Source of the DNA: a virus
DNA length: 37,713 nt
Virus record (IMG/VR): IMGVR_UViG_3300007963_000018
Coordinates: 1 to 37,713 of that record
Reading direction: 5' to 3' (one strand)
In this document: positions 1,119-18,414 of the stretch, piece by piece
Layout: every line of letters begins with the position of its first letter
Position numbering within the stretch: position 1 is the stretch's first letter
Notes under the pieces: generated by a model
What the model saw: the letters and a program-made list of their open reading frames with translations, nothing else
Databases searched by the model: none
What the model was told of the DNA's origin: nothing
Program-made: the position numbers and the translations under genes

Positions 1119-4100
1119 CTACTTCAACTGCGCCCGCCGTGCCGTCTGCCAATACCGATCATGCACCGTCTTGATCCGCTCCTCGTAGTCCGGCAACTCG
1201 TTCTTCACCCACAGCAGGAATTGCCGCTGCTCCTTCACTGACGCCTGCTTGCCGTCGATCAAAACCGGCTGCTTGCCACGCACGCTGGCCTTGATCGCCG
1301 TCAATGCCTTCTTCCGACTCAGTTCATCCATCCCTTCAACCAGCCGATCTCGAATGATCCGCGCTTGCTCCACGTCACCGGCCAGCAAGGCTTCGTTCAG
1401 TTGCCCGTACAGTTCCCGCTTCTCCGAGTGAACCACCTTGCCCCCACTCCAAACCAACTCCTCGTCGTACCCCTGTTGCTTGGCGAACTTCCTCGCTGCC
1501 GCACGCACCAGCTTCGCGTCCTTCTGGCCTTGCTGCACCTGTGACTCGTAGTCTTCGATTTCCAACCATCGACGCACGTTGTGTTCTATGCCGCCCCGCC
1601 ATGAAGTTCCCGGCACGCCAACGGCCCGCATCAAAGGTAGCCTGCGCACCATCTTCTCCACTGCTCCCAATACCGCTTCTCCCTTGGCGTCGTAGTTCTG
1701 ATCACTGGTCAGGATGTTCTTAACGTCCCTTACCATGTTCACACTGTCCTCGGCCAAGTCCTCGACCGGCGCACTGATCGGGATCATCTCCTTCCATCGA
1801 GCCGCCCGTGTATCCATCGGGTCGAGCCATGAAATGTAATCCGTGAAGATGCCGAAGCCGCCATCGTAAATGATATCCATCTGAAGCCGCGCCCCGTAAC
1901 CGGCAAAGGTTTCAGCCTGCTTGGCTGATGCTGGGATGACGACCTCCTTGCGTTCATCATCGTAGAACAAGGCGCGGAACAGGGTGGCGTACAGTTCCCC
2001 CTGCCCGATCATTAGGAACATGCTGCGCAGGAACGGAGCGACATCGCGCACCTTCTTCTTGCTGCCATCCGGCATCGTCACCACCGTGCTGTGCCGCATG
2101 GGTTGCCATACGTTCCGCGCATAGTCCCGTGCCCTTTGGAATCCCCACTTCTGGAACTGGAAAAGGATGCGCAGTGTCGGCTCGTCCATCCACAGCGGGT
2201 GCTGCCTGATGTTGTAGCCGTATTGCTTCTCATCCACCATCTTCCGCAGGTAATCCTGCATCGCCTGCGGGTCAGGATTCCAGTGGCCGTCCTTGTCCAC
2301 CATCAGCAGCTTCTTCACCTGCCCCGGCTTGATGCCCGCCCGTTCAAGTGCCGCCAAATGTTTGGCAAAGGCATCACTATTCGGGGCCGACCTTGACAAC
2401 TCCTGCGCCCGCCGCAGATGCTGCCGTGCCGCCAACAGCGTGATCGCACGGTTAAACTCCTCGGCCTTTCGGTTCATCACCAGTGCCCAGTGGCGAACCT
2501 TGCCCAGTGTTTCGGATACCTTGGCGTCTTTGCCAACCTTCACGTCGTCGTCACCCCACATCACCGCATCACGTCCCGCCAACACGTCATGCTTTAGCAT
2601 CCCCAGCGCATTGGCTTCAGCGATGGCATCCATCTCACCCTTGTTCACTCGGCTCTGCAATGACTTCATGTTCGGAGTGATCACTTGCCATAACACCTTC
2701 GTCGAAGAGAGCAAGGAGTTCCACATGCCAAAGGATTCGGCGTTGGCACGCATGGCGAAGAGGCTGTTACGAACCGCCGTCAACGGGCCGGAGAGATAAG
2801 CTGCCGTGGTGGCCGTCATGCCCCAACGGGAAAGGAAATCACGCGCCGTGTCACGGCCCTGATTAAGCCGGTAGATTGTGTCGATGATTCCCTGTATGTA
2901 CTTCTTGTTATTCTGCCCTTCCACTGACTCAAGGGCAGCTTCAAGTGCCGTCGGAACCTTCTGCCCATTCTTCCCAATGCCCTGCCCGAAGGTGTGGATT
3001 TGTGCTGCCCGCGTAACGAACCGGCGCAGGTAGGCAATGTACGCCTCAATCGAGGTGTCATAAAACTCATTAGGCAACCGCCACTGACGCGCCTTCTCCA
3101 TGTTCGCCATGAAATCGTTCGTGTCGGTGCGGTCATTCAACCCCATCATCCCGTGCATCATGGAGTTCAGCATTCGCTTCGCCTCTTCCCGATCCTTGGC
3201 GTTGCCGTTATCCACCATCGAATCCAGCAGGCGTCCGTATGCATCCGGGTTTAGCTGTGGGTCGTTGATTAAACTCCATGTCTGCTGGCTAAACACCCGT
3301 GGGTAATGCTCGCTGCCAAGGATGGATACGTTCACCCACTTGCCGCCAGTCTTGCTCTTGTCCGGCTGGAACACCTTGACATTATTGTCGCGCAGGAAGT
3401 TGCCTGTCTCTATACCCACGTTCTTCTGCCATGCCACCAGTAGTCGGGTTGCTTCCGATGCCTTGTTGTGCAGGAAATATTCGGCCACCCCCAAGTTGTA
3501 CATACGTTGCGCCTTGGCCCTCTCCGCGCTACCCATTCCGGGCGGCAGCGACCGCTCCCGAATGGAAAAGTATGCTGCCGCCTCACTCTCGGCCTTACTC
3601 AATTGCTTGCGAGTAAGCGGCTCTACCGTCGTTGTCCATGACACCTTCTTCCAGCCGTGCTTCTCGGCGTGCTGCATGGCCTGTTCCTTGGTGTAGAAAA
3701 ATGCCCCCGGCGGCACAACCTTGTCGATGTTGTGCCGCTTCTGATCCTTGCGCTCCTTCGGGTCAGACAGGCCACGGTAATTCCCGTGCTGGTCAATGCC
3801 AGCCATCATCACGCCGCCCTTGCGCAGTACGTTGTACCCGTTCATGTATTCGCCCAGCAACTCCTGCTCCTTATTGAAGTAGGCGTCCACTTTGTCGGCC
3901 ACCGCTGCCATCCGTGGCCCCGCCTTGCGCAGCGTGTCCGTGGTGGCCCACTCTGAGGGACTTAACACGCGCCAACCCAGCTTGCCTTCATCGACACTGA
4001 CTGGCGCACCTTCAGGTATGCCTGACGTGCTTTCATCCATGCTGGCCCCGAAGGTGAGGCCATTGGAATCGCTGTAAAGTTTATCAATTGCCGCCAGTTT

Positions 4101-7100
4101 CTTAATCCCGGTGGCCAGCGTGTCTCGCATCCACCCTTTAAGTACGGTGCGCCCCGGAATAATCTTGGGACTGATAGGCTCCCTTCTCTCGTTCAGTATG
4201 TGAACGCGGGTTACGCCCTTCTCTCCGTCCGTATTGTATTGATACACAGGCCGGGTCGGGATTGCGCTACTGTCGTACAGTTCCTTGACTACCCCTTCGT
4301 TCAAGGCCAACAAGTCCAGCACCTCCGCAGCCGACTCAAGCGTGCGCCCGTGATCCAACTCTGGAGCCAACACGGCGTTTACTACCATCAATTCCTCTTG
4401 AGTCAGGTACAGGCTACTGTTCTTGATGATCTCCATGCTGCCGCCATGCACCACCCAACGGGTAGTCGATGGTTCCTTGGCGCGTACCGCCTTGCGTACA
4501 GTCCTCTGAGAGGTGGTCTTCTCGGAAGGCAGCCGCTTGCGGAAGGTGCTGCGGCTTTGCTTCCTTCGGTCAATCTTGCGGTAACCCTTATCGGCTGCTT
4601 CATCAGCCTCCCTCTCAGTCATGGGTTTCTCGTCAGGGGAAAACTCTTCCTCCCCCATGAAGACCAACCCTTCTTCCGTGGTGATCTCCTGCTCCTCAAC
4701 CGAGTACAGAACCTCATCCCCTTCAACCACCTCCTCAATAATCTGCGGCTCCACAGACCACTCAATGCTCTGGATGTACGCTTCGGCCTGCTCCTTGGTA
4801 TGGAACGACGAAGGTGGCAACTCCACACTCGACACCCCGATGTCGGTCATCCGCTCGGTGTAATTGCGCAGGGTTGCTGCTAGTGCGAAGCGGTAAGCCT
4901 TGGCGTTGCTCTGAGAAGTTCCCGAATGGGAGTAGCTTGGGTCAGCAGCCTCCTCCAAAACCTTGGCCAATTGCTCCTCACTAAAGTTTCCATCAGCATC
5001 ATAGATGCGGCCCGCATCCATCCGCTGCTCACCCTCGCGGTTCCGTGCGTTGAGGTATTCCCCGAATGCGTTGGCGTACTCGTAGGATTTCCCCCCGGCC
5101 TTCCCCCCCTTCATGGAGGCGACCGAGATGGGTGACTTCCCTTCCCCTCTCACGTCCACTTTGCGGTCTTTGACATTCTCTAATGCCTGCGCCTTCTGCC
5201 GGTCAGTCAACTTCCTGTCAGCAGCAAGCATCAACAGCTTGTCCCTCGCCTGCTGCTGCTCGCCTTCTGATGGCAAAACAGATGGCAACACATCGTCAGG
5301 GTCTTTGCCACGGGCCATCGCCACTAACCCGCTGTTAGCGGGTGACTCAAGCACCAGCTTCAAGCGCATGACCTCCTCGGCCTTATCGATTGCCCGCGCC
5401 CTGCCCTCCTCCGCGTGATCAAAGTGAAAGGTTGTCGCCCCGAACCCTGTCCCGCTAACCCCGTTCACCTCATTGCGCCGCACTTTGAAGCGGCCCGTTA
5501 TTTCGGTCATCACATGACGCGCTATCATGGCCTCGTAGAACGAGATCGCTTCACTGATGTGTTCACCCGGCGAGTAATACCCTTGAGACAGGTCGTCGCC
5601 TTCCTTAATCGCATCCGCTTTTCGGCCGCTCTTGCGGGTGCGAAGTGACTGCGTTGAATCTAAAGCGTTTTCGCCCCACACCCGTTCGGCTTCCACGAAC
5701 GCCACGGCACGCACATACCATCCCCAGTCCGCCTTGCCTCTGGAAAGTTCTTCCGGTATATGGTTCGGGTCAGTGATCCACCCTGCCTGTTTAAATTTCT
5801 CCAGTGCCGCATCGTAGTCCAGACCCTCCAACTTATAGTAGGCCAGTGCCCTGAGCAGGGCATCACTCTTGGCCATCATCTTGGTCAGTCGGTTCCGGCC
5901 TTCCTCTCCTGCCGTACTCATGCCGCCCGGATCGGTGGCCACCAACCCTCCCACCTCACTGATCATGTCCTTGGGGGAAACCCGGTCACTTTCCCGTCCT
6001 TCAAAATTTGCCGCCGCCGCTTCTGCCAGCCTCAACGCAGCGTCATACCCTTCTTTGGTGTTCGGGTAATACGAAACCTCAGTGCCTCCTGAATGGGGGA
6101 TCGACAGCTTCAAAAGCTGGCCCGTTTGCCATACATCAGGAATGGCATCCTTCATGTAACTAACCAGTTCGCTCCCGTCAGGTAGCTTCTCAACCCGCAG
6201 GAAGTGTTCCGTGGCTTCAAGGTGCAAGGCCAGCGCACTGGGCATGTCGCGTTCACCATGCTCATCCTTGACTCGGCCTCCCAAGGATTTCATTACCTTG
6301 CGAATCAATGAGCGAACTCCCTTGTAGTACTCATGCCACAGTCGGTCGCCTCTGGCGATTGCCAGAGTCTCCAACTGGGCGGCATGGCGTTCATTGCGCA
6401 TCATTCGCAATGCCTCCATCGCCACCTGTTCCGGCGTGAGCGGGTGGGAGAAGAATCTGCCTCGCAGCTTTCCTTCCGGCTCGCCAACCGTCTTCGTTCG
6501 GGGCGCGTAGTTCCCCACGATATACTCAATCTGACTGGTACTTAACGTGCTGTAGATTGCAGCGAGATAGGAGGAGACATGCTTCATCCCCTTCGGGTTA
6601 ATGCGCAGATCAGTCAGAACATGGCGGATCACTTGAAGATCAAGTAAGTGTACCAGTTCCTCGTCCACCACACTCTCAATGCTGCGCTGGTTTTCTTTCT
6701 TGCCGACCAGCTTCCCGTCAACCAGCTTGTAATGTTTCCGTAACACCTTCGGGTTCACGAAGATCACACCGGGATGCGCCGCGTTCACCCATACGGCATC
6801 ACCCTCCTTCTCGCTCGCCGCCTTTTCGGGGAACTGCATCCGCACTGTATGCACCTCCACCCCTGAAAAATTCCCCACCATCACGTCAATGACATGATCG
6901 ATAAAGGCTTCAGCCACTGGAATCGTTTCCTTGGCCTCGCCCGCCCGCTTCAGGTTCGCCCCCTCCAGTGCGACGACTTTCTGTTTGCCACGCCGCACTG
7001 ACAAGGCATGTCGCTTCTCATCAATGCGCCGCTCCTGTGATTCCTCTTTAGCCTTGGCTTCCTGTGCCTTGCGCTGACGGCGTTCTTCAATTCCCTCTGA

Positions 7101-10100
7101 GACTTGCGCCAGCAGGGAAGTGCCCACCGGGTTCGGCAACGTCCGTCGCGATTGAACCACCCCGTCCACGATCTCTAACCCGCCATCGCTCACTTGGCGT
7201 TGAACATATTTATGTTCCTTCGAGCGTGCTGTCTGCCCCGGAGCATCCCGCTCGGCGGGGCGGTAACGGATGCCGCGCACCGAAAAAGTGGAACCTTTGT
7301 TGACCTCTGGCATGGCCCCCTTGATCGGCCTGTCAACTGCGCCATGCACCACCACCTCAGACTCCTTCTCCCCTTTCCTGCGTGGCTTTATCTCGGTGAT
7401 GATGTAGCCGTCGTGACTGCCTACCTCCTCCAAAGTTTCAATGACTCCCTCTAGTTCACTCCTGCCGGACACCCATAGGGTGGCCGTGCCCATGCCGCCC
7501 GTGGACTCAACAATTAAATCGGACTCAGGCAGGACAACCACGCTGCCCTCCTTGCCCTTGGCGGGAACCTCGTACATGACGTACTCTTTCCCGTTGACTG
7601 CGCCTACGAGTTTACGCGCCTTGATGGCCTGACCTCCACGCCGTGACAACGTGACCTCGCCAGCCTTGCCCGCACGTTTAGCTTGAGCGGCGTTGGCTTG
7701 ACGGGTCGCACCCTTGACCTTCTCTCTGGTGCGCATCGACCCCTTGAGGTATTTATGAATTGCCCGTAGCTGCTGCTCAGTGAATGGCCCGTCCGCCTTA
7801 AACTTCCCCTTACCCTCAAAGCTGGGAAAGGAAAACCTACCCCCTTGAACCGGCTCCCTGCCCATCATGTTGAGCAGTAGGTTCACTCGCTGCAAGCCTT
7901 CCTCAAACTCAGCCTTCGCCTCCTCCCGCCTATTTGCGTGCCGTGCCTGTTTCGGGGCGTTCTCCATCTCAATCAACGTGTTCAGGATTTCCCGCGCCCG
8001 GATCAATGTTTCCAAGTCCAAGACAATGCCGCCTCGCTCCTTCACCTTGTCAGGACTGTTCAGCCTGTCCAGTAGCTTTTGAACCTTGCCGGGGAACACC
8101 TTCCCTTGCGTCTGGTGCGCTCGAATCGCCTTGGCCTGCTCATTAATCTTCTCCACCAACTCTCGGTGTTCCGCCCCACGCTCACGGACGGTCATGCTGT
8201 GGCGTAACACGTCTAGTTCCGTAACTACCTTGCCATCCGAAGCCTCTACATGCCCGCCCTCCATGATGAAGCCGTCTTCGTTGATGTAGCCTCTCGCCTT
8301 GGCAGCAGCAATGGCCCCCGGCGTCCACTGCGGTGGCGGCTGCTCGCCCTCGATGATCGTGTCCAGTTCCGTGGCCTCGCGCTCCGGCCTCAAGTCCACT
8401 GCGCCTGATTCCCCTTGCGACTGGAGGATTGCCTCCACGTCCATCGCTTCATTGCGCACCTCGTACAGGTTCGGGTTCACCACGATTTCTTCGCCAGTGT
8501 TTAAATCCCGAACCAGCACCCAGCCTGCGCCCCCTTGCGGTGGCCCAGCCGCTGCAATCTTGCCTTCAGTGTCTTCAATGACTTCAAACTTTAAGGTCAA
8601 CCGACCCACCTCATCGGAGTCAGGACGAACCTTATTGCCGTCCTCCACTATCCCGCCGGTCGTCTCCTCTGCCCCAACCGGAACCAATATTGTGCCGCCA
8701 GTGTACCTCTCCTCCTGCTGTGTAGTTAGCGCAGCCGCCCTTGCCTTGCGCTGTCGCTCAAGATTCTCCTCGTACTTGCGTTGCTGCTCCTCCAGTTCCG
8801 CTTGCCTTGGGTGCGCTGGATGCTCCGTCTCCTCGCGCTCGGCTTTCTGCGCCTCGGCAAATGCCTGTGCTTCCTCCCGGCTCATCTCTCCAAAGGTGGT
8901 TCCGGTCGGAGCCGAGACACGGAAGCGAACGTCTTTGGACTCCACCTCCACCTCGCCTTTCTGGATTATCGTGCGGTCGGTGTCCCATTTGGCTTCGAGT
9001 TCCTTCAGCCTTTCTTTAGCCGCTTGCAGATCAACCTTCGTGTCGCCCAGAATATTGGCGGCGTCTTCCGATATGATCTCCCTGCCCTCAATCTCCTCTA
9101 TGTCCAACTGAAGTTCAGCGACTTCCTGCCTAGCCTCGCGACGCGCCTTCTTCAGTTCAGGATCGACCACCCGCACATCGCCCTCTTCCACCTCAGACGG
9201 AACCATCCCCGCCGCTTGCTCCATAGTGGCCTTGCTGGTGGTGGTCATAGTCCAGCCGCCACCCAGCGGGATGGAGACTGTGCCGTCCTCGTTCTGGATG
9301 TAATCATCCGAGGTCAGGGCCACGTCTTTCTCATGCTTCACCGCCTCGGAACGCTCATGGAACTCAGTAAACTCCGCGTCCGCTTCCTGAATCAGCTTCA
9401 GCATTTCGCTTTCATCTGTGCCCGTTACTAGTTCACCTTGCAGGGACATCAGTTCCTGACGCATAGCGTTTGCGGACAAGGTGTTGCCGGACATTTCCAG
9501 CCGATGAATCTCCTCATTCATTTCCACTATCCTCGCCTGAATTCGCGCCTTGCGAGCCACTCCTGCTGTAAGTAATCCGAAAACCGCACCCACCACACCG
9601 CCCGCGCCTCCGGCCCGAACCACATGCTCATACAGGTCACGGTTCTTGTCGTACTTGGCCAGTTCCGCCGCAGTGTAGTTCATCCACATGGTCTGCGCTG
9701 TCTCCTGAGCCGCCTCCATGCCAGCACCTTTAGTCGTCTGGATTAATCGCTCCCGCATCTTGCCGTTGCGAATCATCCCGTGAAGTGACCGCCCCCAAAT
9801 TCCATTGCTGCCCTTATCAAGGTTCTTGAACAGCTTCAACGCCATCAAGTTGACACCAAGTGCCTCAATTGCTCCACCGGGCGCGTTCCACTTGTAAGAC
9901 GACCAAGCCATGTCCAGTTCGCGGTCAGTCAGGCGGTCGCGCCCTTCGGCTCTTGCCCTCGCAAGCATTGTCCCATAGGCATCTTCCCAACCTTCCACCA
10001 TCTGCACTGCCATGCCTGTCGCTGCTACTCCAGCGATCTGGATATTGCGTTCCGTCTTTGCTGCCTTGGCAAAGGCCGCTGCACGATCCGCCTCCCGCGC

Positions 10101-10724
10101 CATCAGTGGAGCCTGCGTCTTCCGCCCCGCCACGCCGCCACTCTTTTGGATGTTGCTCATGTGCCGCGCCGTGATCCGGGCACTGCCCCCCATCATATTT
10201 CGGCCTACACTCCCTACGCCCCTGCCTCCAACCATGAAACCCACCGCACTGCCCAACCCTTGGGGAACATCCGAGGCTAGGAAGCTGCCACGGTACTCCT
10301 TACTCTCATCTGGCACTATGTACTCCGTCGCCTCGCGGATGCCCTGACCCACGTTGTACAGGTTCAGGTACTTGGTTCCGAAGGCTTCCGTCTCCTCAAT
10401 CGGCTTCAGATACCCGCCCTCGTCACGGATCGCATCCGGGTTATACTTACGCTCCATGTTGTACGCCCAGATGCCCAAGGCTTCAGGGAAGGAGGCAAAG
10501 GTTCCGGTGATGCCCGTGACGAAGCTGCGATAGGCTTGGCCAATCGCGCTAGTGTCGTCTGACTCTTCCTCAACCTTTTCAGGGCCAGACGCGCCTAGTG
10601 GCTCTAAACTCCAACCCTTGGCTTCAATTGCGGCATCAAAAGGGTCAGCACCCCCTTGCTCTAGTGACCAACCCTTGGCCTCAATGGCCCTAGTGAAGGC
10701 ATCGGTTTGATTTTCGGCTGGCAT
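1119..10724 (-). CDS. Giant polyvalent / internal virion protein, 3201 aa
   Basis: A single uninterrupted frame fills a quarter of the window. It comes last in the tail operon, the place of the largest ejected internal protein in T7-like phages (gp16), and its build resembles the giant multi-domain polyvalent proteins of phages. Visible parts: a duplicated ten-residue motif AIEAKGWSLE within residues 8-43; Gly-rich hydrophobic segments near 151-178, 225-245 and 368-387; charged coiled-coil stretches near 520-548 and 633-671; a zincin-like region near 1265-1480 with DEELVH at 1354-1359, where the first His of HExxH is Glu; and a helical C-terminal region (about 2620-3000) resembling large polyvalent protein-associated domains. 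The inferred role is ejection with the DNA, forming a trans-envelope conduit and perhaps carrying anti-host domains. The coding call is near certain; the domain functions are not. Confidence 0.9.
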   Translation of the reverse strand: MPAENQTDAFTRAIEAKGWSLEQGGADPFDAAIEAKGWSLEPLGASGPEKVEEESDDTSAIGQAYRSFVTGITGTFASFPEALGIWAYNMERKYNPDAIRDEGGYLKPIEETEAFGTKYLNLYNVGQGIREATEYIVPDESKEYRGSFLASDVPQGLGSAVGFMVGGRGVGSVGRNMMGGSARITARHMSNIQKSGGVAGRKTQAPLMAREADRAAAFAKAAKTERNIQIAGVAATGMAVQMVEGWEDAYGTMLARARAEGRDRLTDRELDMAWSSYKWNAPGGAIEALGVNLMALKLFKNLDKGSNGIWGRSLHGMIRNGKMRERLIQTTKGAGMEAAQETAQTMWMNYTAAELAKYDKNRDLYEHVVRAGGAGGVVGAVFGLLTAGVARKARIQARIVEMNEEIHRLEMSGNTLSANAMRQELMSLQGELVTGTDESEMLKLIQEADAEFTEFHERSEAVKHEKDVALTSDDYIQNEDGTVSIPLGGGWTMTTTSKATMEQAAGMVPSEVEEGDVRVVDPELKKARREARQEVAELQLDIEEIEGREIISEDAANILGDTKVDLQAAKERLKELEAKWDTDRTIIQKGEVEVESKDVRFRVSAPTGTTFGEMSREEAQAFAEAQKAEREETEHPAHPRQAELEEQQRKYEENLERQRKARAAALTTQQEERYTGGTILVPVGAEETTGGIVEDGNKVRPDSDEVGRLTLKFEVIEDTEGKIAAAGPPQGGAGWVLVRDLNTGEEIVVNPNLYEVRNEAMDVEAILQSQGESGAVDLRPEREATELDTIIEGEQPPPQWTPGAIAAAKARGYINEDGFIMEGGHVEASDGKVVTELDVLRHSMTVRERGAEHRELVEKINEQAKAIRAHQTQGKVFPGKVQKLLDRLNSPDKVKERGGIVLDLETLIRAREILNTLIEMENAPKQARHANRREEAKAEFEEGLQRVNLLLNMMGREPVQGGRFSFPSFEGKGKFKADGPFTEQQLRAIHKYLKGSMRTREKVKGATRQANAAQAKRAGKAGEVTLSRRGGQAIKARKLVGAVNGKEYVMYEVPAKGKEGSVVVLPESDLIVESTGGMGTATLWVSGRSELEGVIETLEEVGSHDGYIITEIKPRRKGEKESEVVVHGAVDRPIKGAMPEVNKGSTFSVRGIRYRPAERDAPGQTARSKEHKYVQRQVSDGGLEIVDGVVQSRRTLPNPVGTSLLAQVSEGIEERRQRKAQEAKAKEESQERRIDEKRHALSVRRGKQKVVALEGANLKRAGEAKETIPVAEAFIDHVIDVMVGNFSGVEVHTVRMQFPEKAASEKEGDAVWVNAAHPGVIFVNPKVLRKHYKLVDGKLVGKKENQRSIESVVDEELVHLLDLQVIRHVLTDLRINPKGMKHVSSYLAAIYSTLSTSQIEYIVGNYAPRTKTVGEPEGKLRGRFFSHPLTPEQVAMEALRMMRNERHAAQLETLAIARGDRLWHEYYKGVRSLIRKVMKSLGGRVKDEHGERDMPSALALHLEATEHFLRVEKLPDGSELVSYMKDAIPDVWQTGQLLKLSIPHSGGTEVSYYPNTKEGYDAALRLAEAAAANFEGRESDRVSPKDMISEVGGLVATDPGGMSTAGEEGRNRLTKMMAKSDALLRALAYYKLEGLDYDAALEKFKQAGWITDPNHIPEELSRGKADWGWYVRAVAFVEAERVWGENALDSTQSLRTRKSGRKADAIKEGDDLSQGYYSPGEHISEAISFYEAMIARHVMTEITGRFKVRRNEVNGVSGTGFGATTFHFDHAEEGRARAIDKAEEVMRLKLVLESPANSGLVAMARGKDPDDVLPSVLPSEGEQQQARDKLLMLAADRKLTDRQKAQALENVKDRKVDVRGEGKSPISVASMKGGKAGGKSYEYANAFGEYLNARNREGEQRMDAGRIYDADGNFSEEQLAKVLEEAADPSYSHSGTSQSNAKAYRFALAATLRNYTERMTDIGVSSVELPPSSFHTKEQAEAYIQSIEWSVEPQIIEEVVEGDEVLYSVEEQEITTEEGLVFMGEEEFSPDEKPMTEREADEAADKGYRKIDRRKQSRSTFRKRLPSEKTTSQRTVRKAVRAKEPSTTRWVVHGGSMEIIKNSSLYLTQEELMVVNAVLAPELDHGRTLESAAEVLDLLALNEGVVKELYDSSAIPTRPVYQYNTDGEKGVTRVHILNERREPISPKIIPGRTVLKGWMRDTLATGIKKLAAIDKLYSDSNGLTFGASMDESTSGIPEGAPVSVDEGKLGWRVLSPSEWATTDTLRKAGPRMAAVADKVDAYFNKEQELLGEYMNGYNVLRKGGVMMAGIDQHGNYRGLSDPKERKDQKRHNIDKVVPPGAFFYTKEQAMQHAEKHGWKKVSWTTTVEPLTRKQLSKAESEAAAYFSIRERSLPPGMGSAERAKAQRMYNLGVAEYFLHNKASEATRLLVAWQKNVGIETGNFLRDNNVKVFQPDKSKTGGKWVNVSILGSEHYPRVFSQQTWSLINDPQLNPDAYGRLLDSMVDNGNAKDREEAKRMLNSMMHGMMGLNDRTDTNDFMANMEKARQWRLPNEFYDTSIEAYIAYLRRFVTRAAQIHTFGQGIGKNGQKVPTALEAALESVEGQNNKKYIQGIIDTIYRLNQGRDTARDFLSRWGMTATTAAYLSGPLTAVRNSLFAMRANAESFGMWNSLLSSTKVLWQVITPNMKSLQSRVNKGEMDAIAEANALGMLKHDVLAGRDAVMWGDDDVKVGKDAKVSETLGKVRHWALVMNRKAEEFNRAITLLAARQHLRRAQELSRSAPNSDAFAKHLAALERAGIKPGQVKKLLMVDKDGHWNPDPQAMQDYLRKMVDEKQYGYNIRQHPLWMDEPTLRILFQFQKWGFQRARDYARNVWQPMRHSTVVTMPDGSKKKVRDVAPFLRSMFLMIGQGELYATLFRALFYDDERKEVVIPASAKQAETFAGYGARLQMDIIYDGGFGIFTDYISWLDPMDTRAARWKEMIPISAPVEDLAEDSVNMVRDVKNILTSDQNYDAKGEAVLGAVEKMVRRLPLMRAVGVPGTSWRGGIEHNVRRWLEIEDYESQVQQGQKDAKLVRAAARKFAKQQGYDEELVWSGGKVVHSEKRELYGQLNEALLAGDVEQARIIRDRLVEGMDELSRKKALTAIKASVRGKQPVLIDGKQASVKEQRQFLLWVKNELPDYEERIKTVHDRYWQTARRAQLK

Positions 10725-10766: not shown

Positions 10767-12824
10767 TCACGACGGGGCGGTAACTCCCGGCTCAATGCGC
10801 TCCTTCTTGAGGAGGGAAGGATCGGGCCAAAGGCTAGTTCCAAACGGTATGTCCATTTCTTGAAGCCGACGATCCCACCCTTCAAAATACTCAAGGCTAC
10901 GACGTGCATCTTTGAGGTCTTGATACGATTTGGGTCTGTAAAATTTCGTCCCGTTACTGGTGGAAAACTCCTTGGGCCATTGAGTGGCAGGCTTGTCCAT
11001 ATAGGGTTTAAGTTTTTTGTACACCTCCCTGCCTGTGGAGGGAAGCATCACTCCAGACCTTCCCCCTTCATAGTTTTTCCACCAGTTGCTGCGTCCATCT
11101 CCTCCGTACTCACCAAGCGCATCGCCTAGTTTTTCCAGAGAGACATCCCTTTTGTCATAAGCAAAAGACTGAACGCCATCGACTAATTGATCAATGCTAT
11201 CATCGGAACCCCATTCTATATCGTCCGAATAATTGCGGGCGGTGTCTAGCATCCACCGGGCAAGGAACTCAGGAGTCCCGCGTGCCGCCAAGTCTTTTGC
11301 GATATCTCCACGGAATTCATCCACGTTGCCACGAATCTTATCGGGCGGTTGATTGACTAATGGTGGACTGTCCGATGGAGCCTTGCTCGCCCCTTGCCCT
11401 GCCCCTTTGGCGGAATTGTTCGCATTGATGATGCTCCTCTCAAGGCTTTCGATCTGCCCGTCACTACCTATGACCGGCTTCCACACCATGTCGCCCGGTT
11501 GCACCAGCTTCCCTGTCAAGGCATCGACTGGAAGGCCGTCCTTTACTACTCCAATCTTGGATTTTCCATATGCCATTCCAAGAACATCAGCAGCACTTCC
11601 AAGTGCTTGGAGGGAGTTCAGGTCGCCACTCTCCATGAAGGCATTGTAGGCATCAGTAAATATCTTGGCCTTTTCAGGGGCCAGTTTGATCATCTCAGCA
11701 CGATCCTTCGCCGCCACGCCACGATCATGAGCCATTTTATTCAGTTCTTCGATCTGCTCGCGTGACGGGATAATAATATCCCCGCCAGAGAACCGTCTGG
11801 CCGGAGCATCCAACCCCGGCACTGTGCCGCCGCCGCGAGTCACACTGGCCCACGCCTCCTGCCCTAGCACCTTGCGGAGTTCCTCGCTCTCTTTGTAGCG
11901 TTTCAGGGCCGCATGGCCAGCGTTGTTAATCCTCCCGTTCTGGTCATGGAATCCAGCATTGGCTGCTTCGCCACCCTGCTCCCTAAAGAATTGCCCTGCC
12001 GGGGATTCCTTCATGGCATTCAATGACTCGATTTGGCTCTGCGCCTCCGCCTGAACCGAAAAGCCATTTGCCATCATGTATTCCTGAGCAGATTTCCGCC
12101 GCAAAAGCTGGAGGCGATGTGAGTTCGCATCGTTCTTCTGTGCCGTGGTTAATTCAGCGGCTGGCACATAATTATAAATCGTCTCCCAGTCATCGCTCTC
12201 CGCTGCCGAATTCATTGAGCCGATATCCCTGTACAGTAGGTCGCGTGACGCACCCTCGCGCTGCCTGCGCCTCATTTCTTCCCCGTTCTCGAATTGGGTG
12301 TGGTACAGGTTTTCCCACCCCGTCGCCACATTGATGTCACTCCGGTCAATCTGGTTTTGCAGTGTCGCGCCACTGATCAGCGCGGCATCCTGAAGCAGGT
12401 GGGTCTGTGCGTTATACCGATCCATCTGGCTTTGCTGGGTTCCTTCGGCCACGCTCGCATTCACTGCCGAACGGCGGGCCAATGAGTCAGCCATGCTGAT
12501 TTTGGATTCCTTGGTCGCCTCATTGAAGTCATAAGATTGACGACTAATCAGGTTGCGTAGGTTCGCTGACGTAACGGCGTGTGGTTGCAATTGTTCACGA
12601 TGCAGATAGGTCTGCTCGTTCAGATTCGTTGCCGCCTTGGACGCTTCCATCTTCAGCGGGTGCATGTCTGCACTTTGACTCATCGCTTGCTGTTTCGCCG
12701 CAGCGTCCTGCTTCCGCGAGGCAAAACTCTGTCCCTGCTCCATGCCTCTAGCAAAAGATTCAGCCGGATCAGCCGGTTTCCCCAGCCACGGCATATCGCT
12801 TAATGAAATGTTTCCAAGTGCCAT
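10767..12824 (-). CDS. Putative internal virion (ejection) protein, 685 aa
   Basis: A large, mostly helical, Gln/Ala/Ser-rich protein with no signal peptide or clear membrane segment. The ATG at 12824 has an AAAGGA ribosome site nine bases upstream, a pattern shared with several genes of this operon. Residues about 15-150 are a low-hydrophobicity helical region with many Gln, and 440-485 is a Gly/Ser/Pro-rich linker (around KGAGQGASKAPSD). The C-terminal 200 residues look globular, with many Trp and Tyr. It lies between a 355-aa internal-virion-like protein and the 3201-aa giant, matching the gp14-gp15-gp16 order of T7-type ejection proteins. I assign it by position and composition, not by a recognised domain. 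Confidence 0.75.
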   Translation of the reverse strand: MALGNISLSDMPWLGKPADPAESFARGMEQGQSFASRKQDAAAKQQAMSQSADMHPLKMEASKAATNLNEQTYLHREQLQPHAVTSANLRNLISRQSYDFNEATKESKISMADSLARRSAVNASVAEGTQQSQMDRYNAQTHLLQDAALISGATLQNQIDRSDINVATGWENLYHTQFENGEEMRRRQREGASRDLLYRDIGSMNSAAESDDWETIYNYVPAAELTTAQKNDANSHRLQLLRRKSAQEYMMANGFSVQAEAQSQIESLNAMKESPAGQFFREQGGEAANAGFHDQNGRINNAGHAALKRYKESEELRKVLGQEAWASVTRGGGTVPGLDAPARRFSGGDIIIPSREQIEELNKMAHDRGVAAKDRAEMIKLAPEKAKIFTDAYNAFMESGDLNSLQALGSAADVLGMAYGKSKIGVVKDGLPVDALTGKLVQPGDMVWKPVIGSDGQIESLERSIINANNSAKGAGQGASKAPSDSPPLVNQPPDKIRGNVDEFRGDIAKDLAARGTPEFLARWMLDTARNYSDDIEWGSDDSIDQLVDGVQSFAYDKRDVSLEKLGDALGEYGGDGRSNWWKNYEGGRSGVMLPSTGREVYKKLKPYMDKPATQWPKEFSTSNGTKFYRPKSYQDLKDARRSLEYFEGWDRRLQEMDIPFGTSLWPDPSLLKKERIEPGVTAPS

Positions 12825-12836
12825 ATTGTTAATCCT

Positions 12837-13904
12837 TTATTCTATCCTGAAACCGGGCATTGCCTTGTCTATGTCTAGTTGAGGCGGCGTTCCTGCGCCG
12901 TAAATCATCTGATTCATTGCTGCCCCAGCCGGTAGCATCTCCCCGCCAAACGCCCTAGATGTTGCGGAGCCGCTAATGTTTGTGCCCTGTTGCGGCATGA
13001 AGGGCGCAAATCCTCTGGCCATGTTAAGCATTGACCGTCCCGGTTGAGCCGTGGGTTGAGAATACCAAGATAAATCAGGGATGGATGGTTGAGCAGCGGG
13101 GCCGTAAACCGGAGCCGAAGGCCCGTACCAGCTAGATTGGGCCGGTGTACCCCACCACGAATCGTTCATCATGGCTGGCGCAGCGGCTTGCGGCGCAGCA
13201 GCTTGCGGCGCAGCGACTTGCGGCGCAGCGGCTTGCTGTCTACCGCCAATCGCATTGGCCATCGCCATCGTTCCTGCATGGCCAAAGTACATCCCCGCCG
13301 CTTGCATCCCGGTATTGAGCAAGCCGCTAAACCTCGGATCAGGCGCAGCCGCAGTCTTGGCAGCCAGATAATCGCGTGTCCATTTGGTGTCACGCTCTTG
13401 GGTCTTGTGCGCGAGGCGTTGCGCTGGGGTCTGAAACATTGAGGACACCTGCATCACCTTTGGAGCCACAGTGCGATGCTGCTGGTTGACGAATCTTTCC
13501 GCCATGTCGTACCCGCGTTGCATCAGGTCGAGGCTGGTGAGTCCTAAGTCTCTCGCCTCAAGATTTCTAATTGCCCCGCTCCCTGAAGTGCCTGAACTGA
13601 TCCCCCTAGACGCCGCCTTGTCTGCAATCTTAGCCGCTAAATCTCCGGGCACTCTGCCCGACAGGAAATCCTCGGCCACGTTTTTCTGCGAGCCTATGAA
13701 TTTATCGTAGCCAGAGATGCCGCCACGCATTACCTGAAGCAATGCTTCCTGATCCTGCTCCGCAGCTAATCTGGCCAGCTTCCCTGCCTTGCCGACATTG
13801 CGAAGGTTCGCGTCGATTGCGCCTTCCTGCTCCTTGTCGATGTCTACGCCAACAAAGGCTGGGATGTTAGGCTTCTTGCCGAATAATTTACTGAGTAGTC
13901 CCAT
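12837..13904 (-). CDS. Putative internal virion protein (gp14-like), 355 aa
   Basis: The product opens with MGLLSKLFGKKP, a short amphipathic basic start seen in phage internal proteins. A helical Ala-rich region follows (about 25-200), containing a Gly-rich segment (SRGISSGTSGSGAIRN) near residue 100, then a hydrophobic stretch around 205-225 (GMQAAGMYFGHAGTMAMANAIGG). Next come four AAPQ-type repeats and a Pro/Trp/Tyr-rich tail. An AAGGA ribosome site precedes the ATG at 13904. Its place between the neck-like protein and the 685-aa and 3201-aa proteins fits the first of three ejection proteins. The family link is inferred from order and architecture. Confidence 0.75.
   Translation of the reverse strand: MGLLSKLFGKKPNIPAFVGVDIDKEQEGAIDANLRNVGKAGKLARLAAEQDQEALLQVMRGGISGYDKFIGSQKNVAEDFLSGRVPGDLAAKIADKAASRGISSGTSGSGAIRNLEARDLGLTSLDLMQRGYDMAERFVNQQHRTVAPKVMQVSSMFQTPAQRLAHKTQERDTKWTRDYLAAKTAAAPDPRFSGLLNTGMQAAGMYFGHAGTMAMANAIGGRQQAAAPQVAAPQAAAPQAAAPAMMNDSWWGTPAQSSWYGPSAPVYGPAAQPSIPDLSWYSQPTAQPGRSMLNMARGFAPFMPQQGTNISGSATSRAFGGEMLPAGAAMNQMIYGAGTPPQLDIDKAMPGFRIE
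13177..13236 (-). repeat. 15-bp tandem repeat, four copies, encoding Ala-Pro-Gln linker
   Basis: Four consecutive 15-base units of the form GGCGCAGCRRCTTGC (plus-strand reading) differ at only one or two bases. On the coding (minus) strand they give repeated AAPQ-type pentapeptides, a flexible linker in the 355-aa protein. Such an array could vary in copy number by slippage without shifting the frame. Confidence 0.85.
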
Positions 13905-13913
13905 AACGTATCC

Positions 13914-14882
13914 TTAGATCAAGTTAGCCACGCCGCCGCCTCCGTAGGTGGAGGTGTTCTGAAAGCGCGGGATAGCTGCTGCCCCATCGCCGAGGTAATG
14001 CATTAATTGCTCCTCAAGCAACTTCACCGCCCTGCCCTCGTACATTGAAGCCTCTTGCGGTAAATTGTTCTCTGCCTTCCTGATGCTCTGAACCATCTCC
14101 TTCAAGGCTGGTTCGTGGTTAATCAGGAGCCAGTCTGTGTCAGCAGACACAGGTATAAAGCGTAGCTTACCAACAACAGTAACAGTCTTTGTGGATGTGT
14201 CGGGTAGTCCGGGGATCAGGCTGCGTCGATACCCCGGACGCTTCTCTCCCGGTTCGTATGTAGCGATGACGCGCTCAGTGGCGGTGGATGTGTCGTACTC
14301 TTTCACGGTCACGTTTCCCCCGGTAACCGGCTTCTGCACCCCCACCAACTCAGAGAACAGGTTGACTGTCTCAACATAAGACGCGGTCAAGGTGACATAC
14401 TCTCCATCAATGTAGCTGCCACTCTCTAAAGTCCTTATCCAGTTGCCGTTCTGGTCGTACCCCTGAAGCAGAACCCTTAGACCGGCGTCAGCAGTGACTC
14501 CGCTATAAAGCCGCAACTTCTTATTCACTCCATCAATGTCACTGAACGCGACCGCCTCACCCCGGTCAATCAGGGTTAGGTCGTCACCATCCGCGCTGTC
14601 GCGAAGGCCGGGGCCATTCTCCAAAAACTCATACCACTCATTGCGAACTACTCCGGGGTTGTCACTTACCGCCACCGCCTCAATCGTTTCAAGCTGGCGC
14701 GGCCATGTGATGGTGCCGTTGCTGTTGGCTACGGCGTACTTAGCGTAGGTTCCTACCCATTTGCCTTTGTAGAGCAGTCGCTCCTGCGCTTCGTTAATGT
14801 ACCCCACAACGCGACTATCCGTGCTGCTCATTGACAGCATCGTCGCTATGTTTTGCTTAATGTCTCCAAGCGTTATTTTCAT
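13914..14882 (-). CDS. Putative neck / tail tubular protein A-like, 322 aa
   Basis: The N-terminus (MKITLGDIKQNIATMLSM, then a VVGYINEAQERLLYKGKWVG stretch around residues 24-44) has the helix pattern of podoviral adaptor proteins that close the portal ring, where an INEAQ-like helix is typical. A beta-rich middle and a C-terminal helical pair (about 265-300) follow. The start overlaps the stop of the upstream collar gene by four bases (ATGA), so it is translationally coupled. In T7-like order the tail tubular A and B proteins come before the internal proteins, as here. Gene reality is high, the exact family moderate. Confidence 0.7.
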   Translation of the reverse strand: MKITLGDIKQNIATMLSMSSTDSRVVGYINEAQERLLYKGKWVGTYAKYAVANSNGTITWPRQLETIEAVAVSDNPGVVRNEWYEFLENGPGLRDSADGDDLTLIDRGEAVAFSDIDGVNKKLRLYSGVTADAGLRVLLQGYDQNGNWIRTLESGSYIDGEYVTLTASYVETVNLFSELVGVQKPVTGGNVTVKEYDTSTATERVIATYEPGEKRPGYRRSLIPGLPDTSTKTVTVVGKLRFIPVSADTDWLLINHEPALKEMVQSIRKAENNLPQEASMYEGRAVKLLEEQLMHYLGDGAAAIPRFQNTSTYGGGGVANLI

Positions 14883-15715: not shown

Positions 15716-17533
15716 TTACTGATTAGTTGCTGACGATACACCAGTTAGGCAGTCGCACGCAATCGCCTTGGCGGTGCCGTCCATATCTACGTTGGCATAC
15801 GGCTCCTCTTGAGCCTCCCTGCTATTAAGTCGGAATAGTTTAAGTCGTGCGTGCCCTGTCCATTTAAGCCGAGCAGCAAACTCCCAGCCGTAGTTGAATG
15901 GCTTGCCCGTCGCTGGCTCCTCTACCTGAGAGGGCATTCCGAGCCTCATCCGTGGCCGGTACTGCTTCTGATAGTCCACCAGACTCTCGCAGTCGGAGGA
16001 CTGGTACTCTGCTATCACGCTCCAGTCCTGCCACGAAACCCAGCACGGGTACTGGTCTGGGTGGAAGTCAGCGTGGAACGTGACTGTTCCTCCAGTAACT
16101 TCGTCCATCCAGATGTCCCCGCTCTCCAGCATCTTCGCGGAGCCAGTGGTGCCGAAATCAAAGGAGGGAGTCTCCAGTTCAGATGTAATCTTATGCTCGG
16201 TAGTCCCGTCAATGTCCTCGATCTGGTCGCCATCATTAGTTAATTCCCATATCTCCGTGTCCCCGTCAGCGTTGCGAACAAAGGCAAAGCAGCGTTCCAC
16301 GCCATCAAACCGGCCCTTAACCAGTTGGAGGAAGTTCATGTTATGCGTCGTACTGCCGCGTGTTATGTCCAGCTTCCAAAATCCATCATAGGCTGGCGGT
16401 GCCTTGCCGCTTAACCCGCTGATTAAATCAAAGTCCAGTGCCATCAACCCCTTGTAGCCAATTCCAGTGCTGCTGTTGTGGCTGCTCTGCGCCGTAAGCA
16501 GGTATCGGTTGTCGAATAGAACACCGCTGGTGTACTGGAGATATTTCGGTTCATCATACTTAATGATCCGGTGCATCTCTCGGCTCATGGGAGTATTCCC
16601 AAGGCTTTGGAAGTCGCGAACGGCCTGCACAATTGACCGTATCCCATCACGGCTCCGCATGAATATGTCGCCATTAACTAACTCGGTGCTGAAGTGCCCC
16701 ATCGCTCCGTTATGGATCAACACAACACGCTGCTGCGGGTCGCTCACCGCAAACCAATCATAGCGATCAGCGGGAACCACAACGCTGTAAGCTGCGTCAC
16801 TGGTCATCACCATCAACTCGCCCTGACCCAGAGCGGTGTTGGGGGAGGAGACGAACCTCATCGCAGTGATGTTGCCGCTGGCAGTCGGAACAGTGAACGC
16901 CCCTCCGCCCGCTAAATAGTTGTTCTCGGTAAACTTCAGCACTCCGTTACTGCCGCCAACAATGTCTCCAGCAATGAAGTTTCGGCCCTGCGCTACCCAC
17001 AACCGGCCCTGACCGTAAGCCATCGGGCCAGTCCCTACAGGCACTTCGCTTGCCCCTGTGTTCGAGTGTCGGCTCGCGCTGCCATCCCATATGAACGGAG
17101 CAGTGGTGCCGTCTTGAATAATCAGGTAGTTCTCAGCCTGCACCATATGGACGCGCTCTCGCGTCGTAGACATTACAGTGTCGCTGCTGCCGTCGTTGTA
17201 GGTGATGTCGCTTACCGCCCAGTCTGTCCCAGTGCTGGGGGGAGTCAGCGTGTAAGTCCTCCCTGCGACCACCGCCACCAGTTGCCCGTCACTATAATCA
17301 TAGTAACCAGCACCCTGAAAGCGGTTGGTCGTGAGGGCGGTAGCGGCTGCGCCAGTCGCTAGTGAAACGCGCTTGAATCCCGGTCGGGTCTTGGCATAGC
17401 CGCCACGAAAGGTTACGTTCTGTGCGTAAGCACACTGGTTCTTGCCGATAGTGCCGGGAGAGCGGCCACTGTCCATCCCCCCACTGAGGGACGTTATGCC
17501 GTCCACTACCCTGCCTGCATCAACAATTGCCAT
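15716..17533 (-). CDS. Putative tail nozzle / tail tubular protein B-like, 605 aa
   Basis: The product is beta-rich throughout, with many Trp, Tyr and Gly. It starts with a pattern (SLSGGMDSGRSPGTIGKNQCAYAQNVTFRGG, then KTRPGFKRV) common in podoviral nozzle and stabilisation proteins, where 'N-x-xF-R-G-G-x-x-x-x-RPG' opens a propeller-like body. Length and position next to the neck-like gene match T7 gp12 or P22 gp10-type roles as the distal tail tube. The ATG at 17533 overlaps the protease stop by one base (TAATG), giving coupled translation. Function is inferred from pattern and order. Confidence 0.7.
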   Translation of the reverse strand: MAIVDAGRVVDGITSLSGGMDSGRSPGTIGKNQCAYAQNVTFRGGYAKTRPGFKRVSLATGAAATALTTNRFQGAGYYDYSDGQLVAVVAGRTYTLTPPSTGTDWAVSDITYNDGSSDTVMSTTRERVHMVQAENYLIIQDGTTAPFIWDGSASRHSNTGASEVPVGTGPMAYGQGRLWVAQGRNFIAGDIVGGSNGVLKFTENNYLAGGGAFTVPTASGNITAMRFVSSPNTALGQGELMVMTSDAAYSVVVPADRYDWFAVSDPQQRVVLIHNGAMGHFSTELVNGDIFMRSRDGIRSIVQAVRDFQSLGNTPMSREMHRIIKYDEPKYLQYTSGVLFDNRYLLTAQSSHNSSTGIGYKGLMALDFDLISGLSGKAPPAYDGFWKLDITRGSTTHNMNFLQLVKGRFDGVERCFAFVRNADGDTEIWELTNDGDQIEDIDGTTEHKITSELETPSFDFGTTGSAKMLESGDIWMDEVTGGTVTFHADFHPDQYPCWVSWQDWSVIAEYQSSDCESLVDYQKQYRPRMRLGMPSQVEEPATGKPFNYGWEFAARLKWTGHARLKLFRLNSREAQEEPYANVDMDGTAKAIACDCLTGVSSATNQ

Positions 17534-18414
17534 TACTTCGTCGCTTTCTTTTCCATCTTGATGAGGAACGGATATAGCTTGCTTTCGCCGCTGCCCTTGC
17601 CATCCCCCTCACTCGGCCCCTCAATCGGGAGGCTTTCAATTTCCTTCATGGTCACAGGCAGATTAGGATTCATCGCCCACTCCACCTTGTTGTCCTCGCT
17701 CCACTTCCACATCCGAGCCACTGGCACACATAAGTTGTAGTCACTGCCAGCACCACGCACGATCATGCCAATATATTTCCCCGCATCATTGGCCATGACA
17801 CCGCCACTGCTGCCCGGATAGGCCGGGGCCGTGGTCTGCATGAACGGAACCTTGAACAGAATGCGCCCGTGCGCGGACAACACTCCCTCGCTGTAAGAGT
17901 TGCTGCCATCCCCGCCAAGGAAACTGCCGCAATGATGGATGTGCGTCCCAATGCGCGGCAACTTGCCGTCCTTCGGATAGAACTCCGTAGTCGCATCCGC
18001 CTTGAAATCCTCACTCAAGACCAACATTAGGCATAGGTCATGCTTATTGGCTGGGGAGTAGCGAATGATCTTCGCGTCCACCACCACTTCACCCGTGCGA
18101 CGGCCATCCTTGTTCCGCAGTTCGCGCACCAGCTTCGGGTCTTCAAAGGTGATCTGCTTGGTCGGCTTGCCGTTCACGATGCGTTCCTCCACTTTGCGAA
18201 GATGCTCCACTACATGACCAGCACTCCAAGCGAACCACACATCCTTCCCGTCCACCTTGCGAACGTACAGGTTGCCGCTGCCTTCAGACTTCTGGTATCC
18301 CAGTTCCGCACGAACCGTGACACTGATCTTGTTAAGGTACTCAGGGACGTACCGCTCTGCTGCACAAAGAGTCATGCCCCCCAGCAGCCACATAGTTGCA
18401 ATGATAGCTTTCAT
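17533..18414 (-). CDS. Secreted trypsin-like serine protease, 293 aa
   Basis: All three chymotrypsin-fold landmarks are visible: His67 in WSAGHVVEHL, Asp126 in KHDLCLMLV, and Ser203 in PGSSGG. Residues 1-19 (MKAIIATMWLLGGMTLCAA) form a classic signal peptide with likely cleavage before ERYVPEY, so the enzyme should leave the cytoplasm or sit in the virion. A GTG further upstream (18444) would extend the frame, but the ATG at 18414 overlaps the upstream stop as ATGA and starts exactly at the signal peptide, so I chose it. It lies between a His-rich collar gene and the nozzle gene, inside a structural operon. Possible roles are virion protein maturation, degradation of host surface proteins, or lysis; none is proven. 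Confidence 0.9.
   Translation of the reverse strand: MKAIIATMWLLGGMTLCAAERYVPEYLNKISVTVRAELGYQKSEGSGNLYVRKVDGKDVWFAWSAGHVVEHLRKVEERIVNGKPTKQITFEDPKLVRELRNKDGRRTGEVVVDAKIIRYSPANKHDLCLMLVLSEDFKADATTEFYPKDGKLPRIGTHIHHCGSFLGGDGSNSYSEGVLSAHGRILFKVPFMQTTAPAYPGSSGGVMANDAGKYIGMIVRGAGSDYNLCVPVARMWKWSEDNKVEWAMNPNLPVTMKEIESLPIEGPSEGDGKGSGESKLYPFLIKMEKKATK

What the first reader, a model, noticed from the sequence alone, without database searches (positions are those of the whole stretch)
1119..10724. A single 3201-residue ejection-type polyvalent protein with a degenerate zincin motif
Seen: one intact frame of 9.6 kb with hydrophobic Gly-rich segments, coiled coils and a DEELVH motif at residues 1354-1359, where the first His of HExxH is Glu. 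Known: giant phage polyvalent proteins often hold peptidase and other effector domains and are ejected with the genome. Inferred: this phage may deliver a conduit plus effector domains. The altered metal site suggests either a variant or a dead protease domain.
Basis: partly seen in the sequence, partly recalled or inferred. Interest (0 to 1): 0.55.

Follow-up and report, generated by a model that had tools for sequence, protein, structure and literature searches.

The report
Giant phage protein, conserved EExxH domain
This phage encodes a 3201-residue protein, probably injected with its DNA, in which what looked like a broken protease site is in fact a site kept unchanged in giant proteins of quite different phages, so it is probably a working variant rather than wreckage.

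Summary
The ORF is real: 1119-10724, minus strand, 3201 aa, with DEELVH at 1354-1359. It closes a virion operon (adaptor, 355 aa, 685 aa, giant). Three related phages carry giants of 2449, 3687 and 2583 aa at the same place that share its N-terminal (~28-460) and C-terminal (~2238-3200) modules but not its middle. One passes Pfam's Kinase-PolyVal cut-off, so the polyvalent reading is supported by homology. Against the nearest relative, terminase and several tail proteins are 84-95% identical, but the giant's ends only 32-36% and its middle is unrelated. "Degenerate" is the wrong word for the motif: eight distinct giants, down to 14% identity, all have EExxH at this site and ExxR 63-97 residues later; with one Gly these are the only invariant columns, and none has HExxH there. 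A low-confidence AlphaFold model ranks zincins first. Best reading: an ejected, cassette-swapping cargo protein with a conserved EExxH zincin-like domain. Metal binding, catalysis and packaging are untested; no host was found.

The parts
1119..10724 (-). Giant ORF, 3201 aa (P0001)
   Evidence: homologs in three related phages
9345..10643 (-). N-terminal module, residues ~28-460, Gly-rich with hydrophobic stretches; shared with P0002-P0004
   Evidence: profile E 2e-72 on P0001
9558..9614 (-). Strongest hydrophobic Gly-rich stretch, residues 371-389
8625..9224 (-). Highly charged stretch, residues 501-700, possible coiled coil
   Evidence: composition only
6225..6917 (-). EExxH zincin-like domain, residues 1270-1500
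6648..6662 (-). EELVH motif, residues 1355-1359 (E at the first metal-His position)
6405..6416 (-). ExxR motif (EALR), residues 1437-1440, at the place of the third zinc ligand of zincins
4014..6224 (-). Orphan cargo region, residues ~1501-2237, no recognised domain
1125..4013 (-). C-terminal module, residues ~2238-3200, conserved, modelled as nearly all helix
   Evidence: (profile E 1.7e-121 on P0001)
10767..12824 (-). 685-aa gene upstream; candidate ejection protein (position of N4 gp51 / T7 gp15)
   Evidence: synteny; no family match
12837..13904 (-). 355-aa gene; candidate ejection protein (position of N4 gp52 / T7 gp14)
   Evidence: synteny; no family match
13914..14882 (-). 322-aa tail adaptor, SU10_adaptor-like
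   Evidence: E 1.3e-5, just below the curated cut-off

Best explanation
The ORF encodes the giant ejected cargo protein of a short-tailed phage. Shown: it is the last gene of a tail-side operon (adaptor, 355 aa, 685 aa, giant); its two ends are conserved in related phages; its middle is replaced by other domains, among them a polyvalent-type kinase; and it carries a zincin-like domain with an invariant EExxH...ExxR signature. Inferred: the conserved ends are the delivery parts (membrane-active Gly-rich N-terminus, large helical C-terminus for packaging) and the middle is exchangeable cargo. Inferred: the EExxH domain keeps a metal-type pocket in which E1355 replaces the first His, E1356 is the general base, H1359 and E1437 are the other ligands and R1440 is a second-shell residue; it may process the giant protein or act on a host protein, possibly with another metal than zinc.
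For: Homologous ends and unrelated middles. Kinase-PolyVal in P0002 at E 9e-16, above the Pfam cut-off. Same gene order in the relatives whose operon is held. Against contig 3300009104_000038: terminase 90.7, tail 605 aa 92.1, protease 95.1, collar 88.5, adaptor 84.5, portal 82.3% identical, but the giant 32% (C-term) and 36% (N-term). EExxH and ExxR in 8 of 8 distinct members; invariant columns of A14 are G, E, E, H, E, R only. Four of the seven relatives (P2, P3, P4 by portal or C-terminus, P8 by a query without the motif) were found without using the motif. Model element order helix, three strands, motif helix, later helix; the first 8 VIA-align rows are zincins by title or recalled class (selecase Z 6.2, IRAP, PSA, LTA4H). 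Precedent for first-His-to-Glu change: zincins show this substitution about twofold more often than expected (PMC3650047, passages); ZIP8/ZIP14 EEXXH is believed to broaden metal specificity (PMC5661630, passage). Three-gene ejection operon with a giant protein in N4 (PMC12633501, passages).
Against: Sequence support that P0001's own domain belongs to the family is modest. A profile of P2-P4 does not find it above 200 shuffles; P2-P5 does (8.8 bits, best of 500 shuffles 6.8); P2-P7 ranks it third, behind 2 of 1000 shuffles. The model has pLDDT 54.7, and VIA-align Z of 5-6 is within the range seen for chance arrangements. No Foldseek hit reaches E 0.001. No second effector domain is recognised in the window's protein. 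P5-P7 were found with patterns that contain the motif, so they cannot count for the Glu. No proteomics, no host.
Confidence: 0.62

Rival explanations
1. The EExxH domain is a pseudo-zincin: no metal, no catalysis. The Glu/His/Glu/Arg cluster is a salt-bridge network and the domain serves as a scaffold or protein-binding unit in the ejected giant.
For: The first His, a metal ligand in zincins, is Glu in 8 of 8, and an Arg is invariant one turn from the third-ligand Glu. The model also matches rows of anthrax lethal factor at residues 45-251, i.e. outside its catalytic domain, a region recalled to be a dead zincin copy. Substituted zincins without known role exist (PMC3650047, passages).
Against: A dead site need not keep the general-base Glu, the second His and the third-ligand Glu invariant at 14-41% identity.
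Confidence: 0.4
2. The region 1265-1500 of P0001 is unrelated to the domain of the relatives; the motif is a chance match in a helix-rich stretch, and only the giant polyvalent protein itself is real.
For: EExxH alone occurs by chance 0.55 times per shuffled P0001; 3-member profile fails; 6-member profile is beaten by 2 of 1000 shuffles.
Against: The best hhalign hit of the P2-P4 profile anywhere in P0001 is this region with the motif in register; a pairwise search to P5 aligns both DEELVH/DEEIRH and AMEALRM/AMEGLRM; element order of the model.
Confidence: 0.15
3. The giant protein is not ejected but is a structural or tape-measure-like tail component that stays in the particle.
For: Long, helix-rich C-terminal module and position among tail genes.
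Against: Short-tail gene set (adaptor, collar proteins, no tail-tube or sheath gene recognised), extreme divergence and replacement of the middle while other tail proteins are 84-95% identical, and a kinase in the homolog.
Confidence: 0.12

Closest known systems
Polyvalent proteins of phages (Iyer et al. 2017, PMC5512222)
   Same: Giant phage protein, cargo replaced between relatives, zincin-like domain, Kinase-PolyVal in a homolog; the paper places that kinase mainly in phages of Verrucomicrobia-Chlamydia and Bacteroidetes
   Different: The text on peptidases (section 8, read whole) describes HEXXH and HEXXXH sites; EExxH is not mentioned there. The window's own protein has no recognised Pfam domain.
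Zincin-like metallopeptidases (selecase, M1 aminopeptidases)
   Same: Order of core elements and best structural rows; Glu, His and a later Glu at the expected places
   Different: First His is Glu in 8 of 8 members; low-confidence model; no activity known
N4 gp50 virion RNA polymerase and its ejection operon gp50/gp51/gp52 (PMC12633501)
   Same: Three-gene ejection operon with a giant protein (3500/644/150 aa there, 3201/685/355 aa here); a zincin-type motif domain and a large helical C-terminus
   Different: No RNA polymerase recognised; EExxH, not HExxH; no detectable sequence relation was found in the phage collection
ZIP8/ZIP14 EEXXH metal site (PMC5661630)
   Same: Same first-His-to-Glu change in an HEXXH metal helix; believed to broaden metal specificity
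   Different: Membrane transporter, unrelated fold; an analogy only

Membership tests
Polyvalent proteins | Several domains of disparate activity in one polypeptide | tested here: inconclusive
   Window protein: only the EExxH domain could be assigned. Homolog P0002: kinase above cut-off plus a sigma-like stretch.
Polyvalent proteins | Encoded with phage virion genes | tested here: met
   Adaptor, collar, terminase in the same record and same order in relatives
Polyvalent proteins | Delivered into the host with the DNA | not testable with these tools
   Needs virion proteomics or translocation assay
Zincin metallopeptidases | HExxH active-site motif | tested here: not met
   EExxH in 8 of 8 distinct members at this site
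Zincin metallopeptidases | Third-ligand residue on a later helix | tested here: met
   Invariant Glu of ExxR, 63-97 residues after the His, 8 of 8
Zincin metallopeptidases | Helix, three-stranded sheet, motif helix, second helix | tested here: inconclusive
   Model has this order but pLDDT 54.7, best Z 6.2
Zincin metallopeptidases | Zinc-dependent peptidase activity | not testable with these tools
   No biochemistry
Podovirus ejection proteins (T7 gp16 / N4 gp50 type) | Largest gene of a three-gene ejection operon beside the adaptor/tail genes | tested here: met
   Order adaptor, 355, 685, 3201 aa; counterparts in relatives. That the two smaller genes are ejection proteins is inferred from position.
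N4-type virion RNA polymerase | Single-chain RNA polymerase domain | tested here: not met
   No RNA polymerase family among Pfam matches at E up to 10 nor NCBIfam at 0.1
Podovirus ejection proteins (T7 gp16 / N4 gp50 type) | Present in virions | not testable with these tools
   No proteomics

The most novel reading that the evidence does not exclude
The EExxH...ExxR domain is a so far undescribed class of zincin-fold enzyme with a Glu-His-Glu metal site, perhaps using manganese or iron, which giant ejected proteins of unrelated phages carry between the membrane-active N-terminus and the cargo, and which releases or activates the cargo after entry.
Probability: 0.25. Interest if true: 0.7.

Novelty: new variant of a known kind. 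Interest (0 to 1): 0.5.

Why it matters
If the site is live, it adds a metal-site type to the zincin fold and gives a defined, testable residue set (E1355, E1356, H1359, E1437, R1440) for the open question of what the very common peptidase-like domains of ejected phage proteins do. If it is dead but conserved, it shows a zincin reused as a structural unit in protein delivery. Either way, the near-identical particles with swapped giant genes give a natural experiment on ejected cargo.

Tried and rejected
Rejected: that the motif is private decay in this phage (8 of 8 members carry it). Rejected: that the motif by itself is significant. Rejected: that the giant is an N4-type RNA polymerase.

Led nowhere: Pfam, PHROGs, NCBIfam and PDB-sequence searches of P0001; isolated phage genomes by portal, by P0001 residues 1-2990 and by the L038 domain, none matched; plasmids with the L034 domain, none; two scans of genome contigs with the C-terminal and portal alignments, 0 relatives among 61 and 43 candidate stretches, so no host; AlphaFold model of 2430-3201, pLDDT 47.5, with no significant match in BFVD; profile search of the PDB with the domain alignments; sigma and kinase profiles of P2-P4 against P0001, not above 200 shuffles; N- and C-terminal profiles of P1-P4 against P5-P8, not above shuffles except one short N-terminal match in P8 (4.8 bits; 1 of 200 shuffles as good) that I do not count; Pfam and PHROGs scans of the domain members gave only single-member weak matches. 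VIA-align compared 223 of the chains Foldseek ranked highest; a family not listed there is not excluded.

Literature: PMC5512222 (abstract, sections 8, 29, 33 and passages), PMC3650047, PMC5661630, PMC7824862 and PMC12633501 (passages only). The searches for EExxH with metalloprotease, for inactive or degenerate zincins, and for polyvalent protein with sigma factor listed no paper on an EExxH domain in phage giant proteins; only this open library was searched. Recalled, not from a call: active-site numbers of IRAP (464/468), P. falciparum M1 (496) and E. coli PepN (297), which would put E1355 (model residue 101) opposite their first His if the ends of the ranges align without gaps; the zincin class of most rows; the dead copy in lethal factor.

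Full report
Observation. The window is a 37,713-base virus record. The frame 1119-10724 is open on the minus strand and encodes 3201 residues. Codon-position GC of 61.5, 41.7 and 69.2% is that of a coding frame, and long stretches are conserved in relatives. The motif reads D1354-E-E-L-V-H1359. Alone it is weak: two EExxH against 0.55 expected in 1000 shuffles.

Relatives. A portal-protein scan of IMG/VR found four related contigs, two of which, 43.7 and 47.2 kb, hold a homolog of the giant; a scan with the C-terminal module added a third phage, IMGVR_UViG_3300025110_000031. The proteins are P0002 (2449 aa), P0003 (3687 aa) and P0004 (2583 aa). Two further contigs carry the same 2449-residue gene as P0002 and were counted once. 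Profiles of the three match P0001 at 117-438 (E 2e-72) and 2238-3200 (E 1.7e-121); 200 shuffles of P0001 do not come near. The middle of P0001 matches nothing clearly in the other seven giants.

A swapped gene on a constant particle. Between the window and contig 3300009104_000038 the identities are 84.5 (adaptor), 92.1 (605-aa tail protein), 95.1 (trypsin-like protease), 88.5 (collar), 90.7 (terminase) and 82.3% (portal). The 685-aa gene matches at 54.5% over residues 1-118 only, and the giant at 32% (C-terminus) and 36% (N-terminus) with no match in the middle. Other genes vary as well: the 1095-aa fibre matches over its first 62 residues only, the integrase is 36% identical, and three small genes have no match in that contig. 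So the giant belongs to the variable set, with the fibre and the integrase, beside a nearly constant packaging and tail set.

What kind of protein. P0002 carries Kinase-PolyVal (PF18762, E 9e-16, above the cut-off) and a weaker sigma-like stretch (PF07638 E 7e-4; TIGR02937 E 3.9e-5; both below their cut-offs). P0003 has two intact HExxH sites elsewhere in its cargo. The paper that defines polyvalent proteins places that kinase mainly in phages of Verrucomicrobia-Chlamydia and Bacteroidetes (PMC5512222, passage); whether this phage infects such hosts is a guess. The window's protein itself has no recognised family and no Kinase-PolyVal. The order adaptor, 355 aa, 685 aa, giant resembles the N4 ejection operon gp52 (150 aa), gp51 (644 aa), gp50 (about 3500 aa), whose giant also has a zincin-type motif domain and a large helical C-terminal part (PMC12633501, passages). 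This is a likeness of layout; no sequence relation was seen.

The EExxH domain. BLAST links P0002, P0003 and P0004 in this region (E 7e-6 to 3e-43), and each has [DN]EExxH. A scan with that region found a fourth, unrelated giant (L034, at least 4642 aa, with helicase and methylase matches), and a second scan two more (L038, L039). The patterns of those two scans contain the motif, so those three members are biased for the Glu. A last scan used only the part behind the motif and found a further protein (L043; four near-copies L044-L047 counted once), which again has DEEVRH. In all, 8 of 8 distinct members have EExxH followed by ExxR 63-97 residues after the His, and 0 of 8 have HExxH at that site. 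In the 8-member alignment, with identities of 14-41% to the first sequence, the invariant columns are one Gly, E, E, H, E and R. Of the seven relatives, four (P2, P3, P4, P8) were found without use of the motif.

How sure is P0001's place in the family? The region is the best hhalign match of the P2-P4 profile in P0001, in register, but weak (P 0.035 over the whole protein, 0.006 for the region alone). With hmmsearch the P2-P4 profile misses it, the P2-P5 profile ranks it above all 500 shuffles, and the P2-P7 profile ranks it below 2 of 1000 shuffles. A direct search with P0001's domain matches P5 at both motifs. I judge membership likely, not proven.

Structure. AlphaFold on residues 1255-1515 with four sequences gave pLDDT 54.7 and pTM 0.46, with the order helix, strands, motif helix, later helices. 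Foldseek's best match of 350,542 chains is selecase, a minimal zincin (E 0.53, probability 0.66), then PepN (E 1.5); no match reaches E 0.001. In VIA-align ranks 1-8 are selecases, M1-type aminopeptidases and LTA4 hydrolase (Z 5.1-6.2), followed by a mixture of zincins and unrelated rows such as a baculovirus capsid protein and ion channels. The tool warns that Z under 8 may be a common arrangement. Since the alignment given to AlphaFold already joined P0001 with the relatives, the model is not an independent test of that homology.

Mechanism. Shown: conserved ends, replaced middle, invariant EExxH/ExxR. Inferred: delivery by the ends; a metal-type pocket with Glu in place of the first His. 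Precedents are that the first His of zincins is replaced by Glu or Arg about twofold more often than expected (PMC3650047, passages) and that EEXXH in ZIP8/ZIP14 is believed to broaden metal specificity (PMC5661630, passage). The main rival is a conserved dead site held by salt bridges, and I put it not far behind.

Verdict. A known kind of protein with a variant, conserved site that I did not find described in the papers searched.

Noticed in passing
window 17533-18444 (-): Trypsin-like protease gene (PF13365, E 2.1e-8) between two tail-collar genes, with an apparent signal peptide and triad residues by eye; 95% identical in contig 3300009104_000038 and 65.5% in L003, not matched in the 47-kb contig 3300031701_000001.
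   Followed up: partly
P0002 residues ~1042-1203, P0003 ~963-1044 (L011, L014): Sigma-factor-like stretches inside the giant proteins of relatives (TIGR02937 E 3.9e-5, RpoD_Cterm E 0.0015, below curated cut-offs; PDB SigA E 0.07). An ejected sigma-like domain would fit early transcription takeover; not detected in the window's protein.
   Followed up: partly
P0003 residues 1513 and 1866 (L014): Two intact HExxH sites in the cargo of the same polypeptide that also has the EExxH domain.
   Followed up: no
L034 6629-20554 (+): A giant phage frame of at least 4642 aa, open at the 3' end, with SNF2/ResIII helicase and methylase matches plus the EExxH domain.
   Followed up: partly
window 10602-10709 (-): Tandem near-repeat AIEAKGWSLE at the very N-terminus of the giant (residues ~13-22 and ~32-41), seen by eye; P0002 has a loosely similar stretch.
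   Followed up: no
window 30265-31521 (-): A 418-aa conserved gene, possibly the major capsid protein by position, on the opposite strand to portal and scaffold-like genes; 72% and 68% identical in two relatives, no family match.
   Followed up: no
window 31780-32934 (+): Tyrosine-type integrase (PF00589, E 7.5e-11), so the phage may be temperate; 36% identical in one relative and not matched in another.
   Followed up: no
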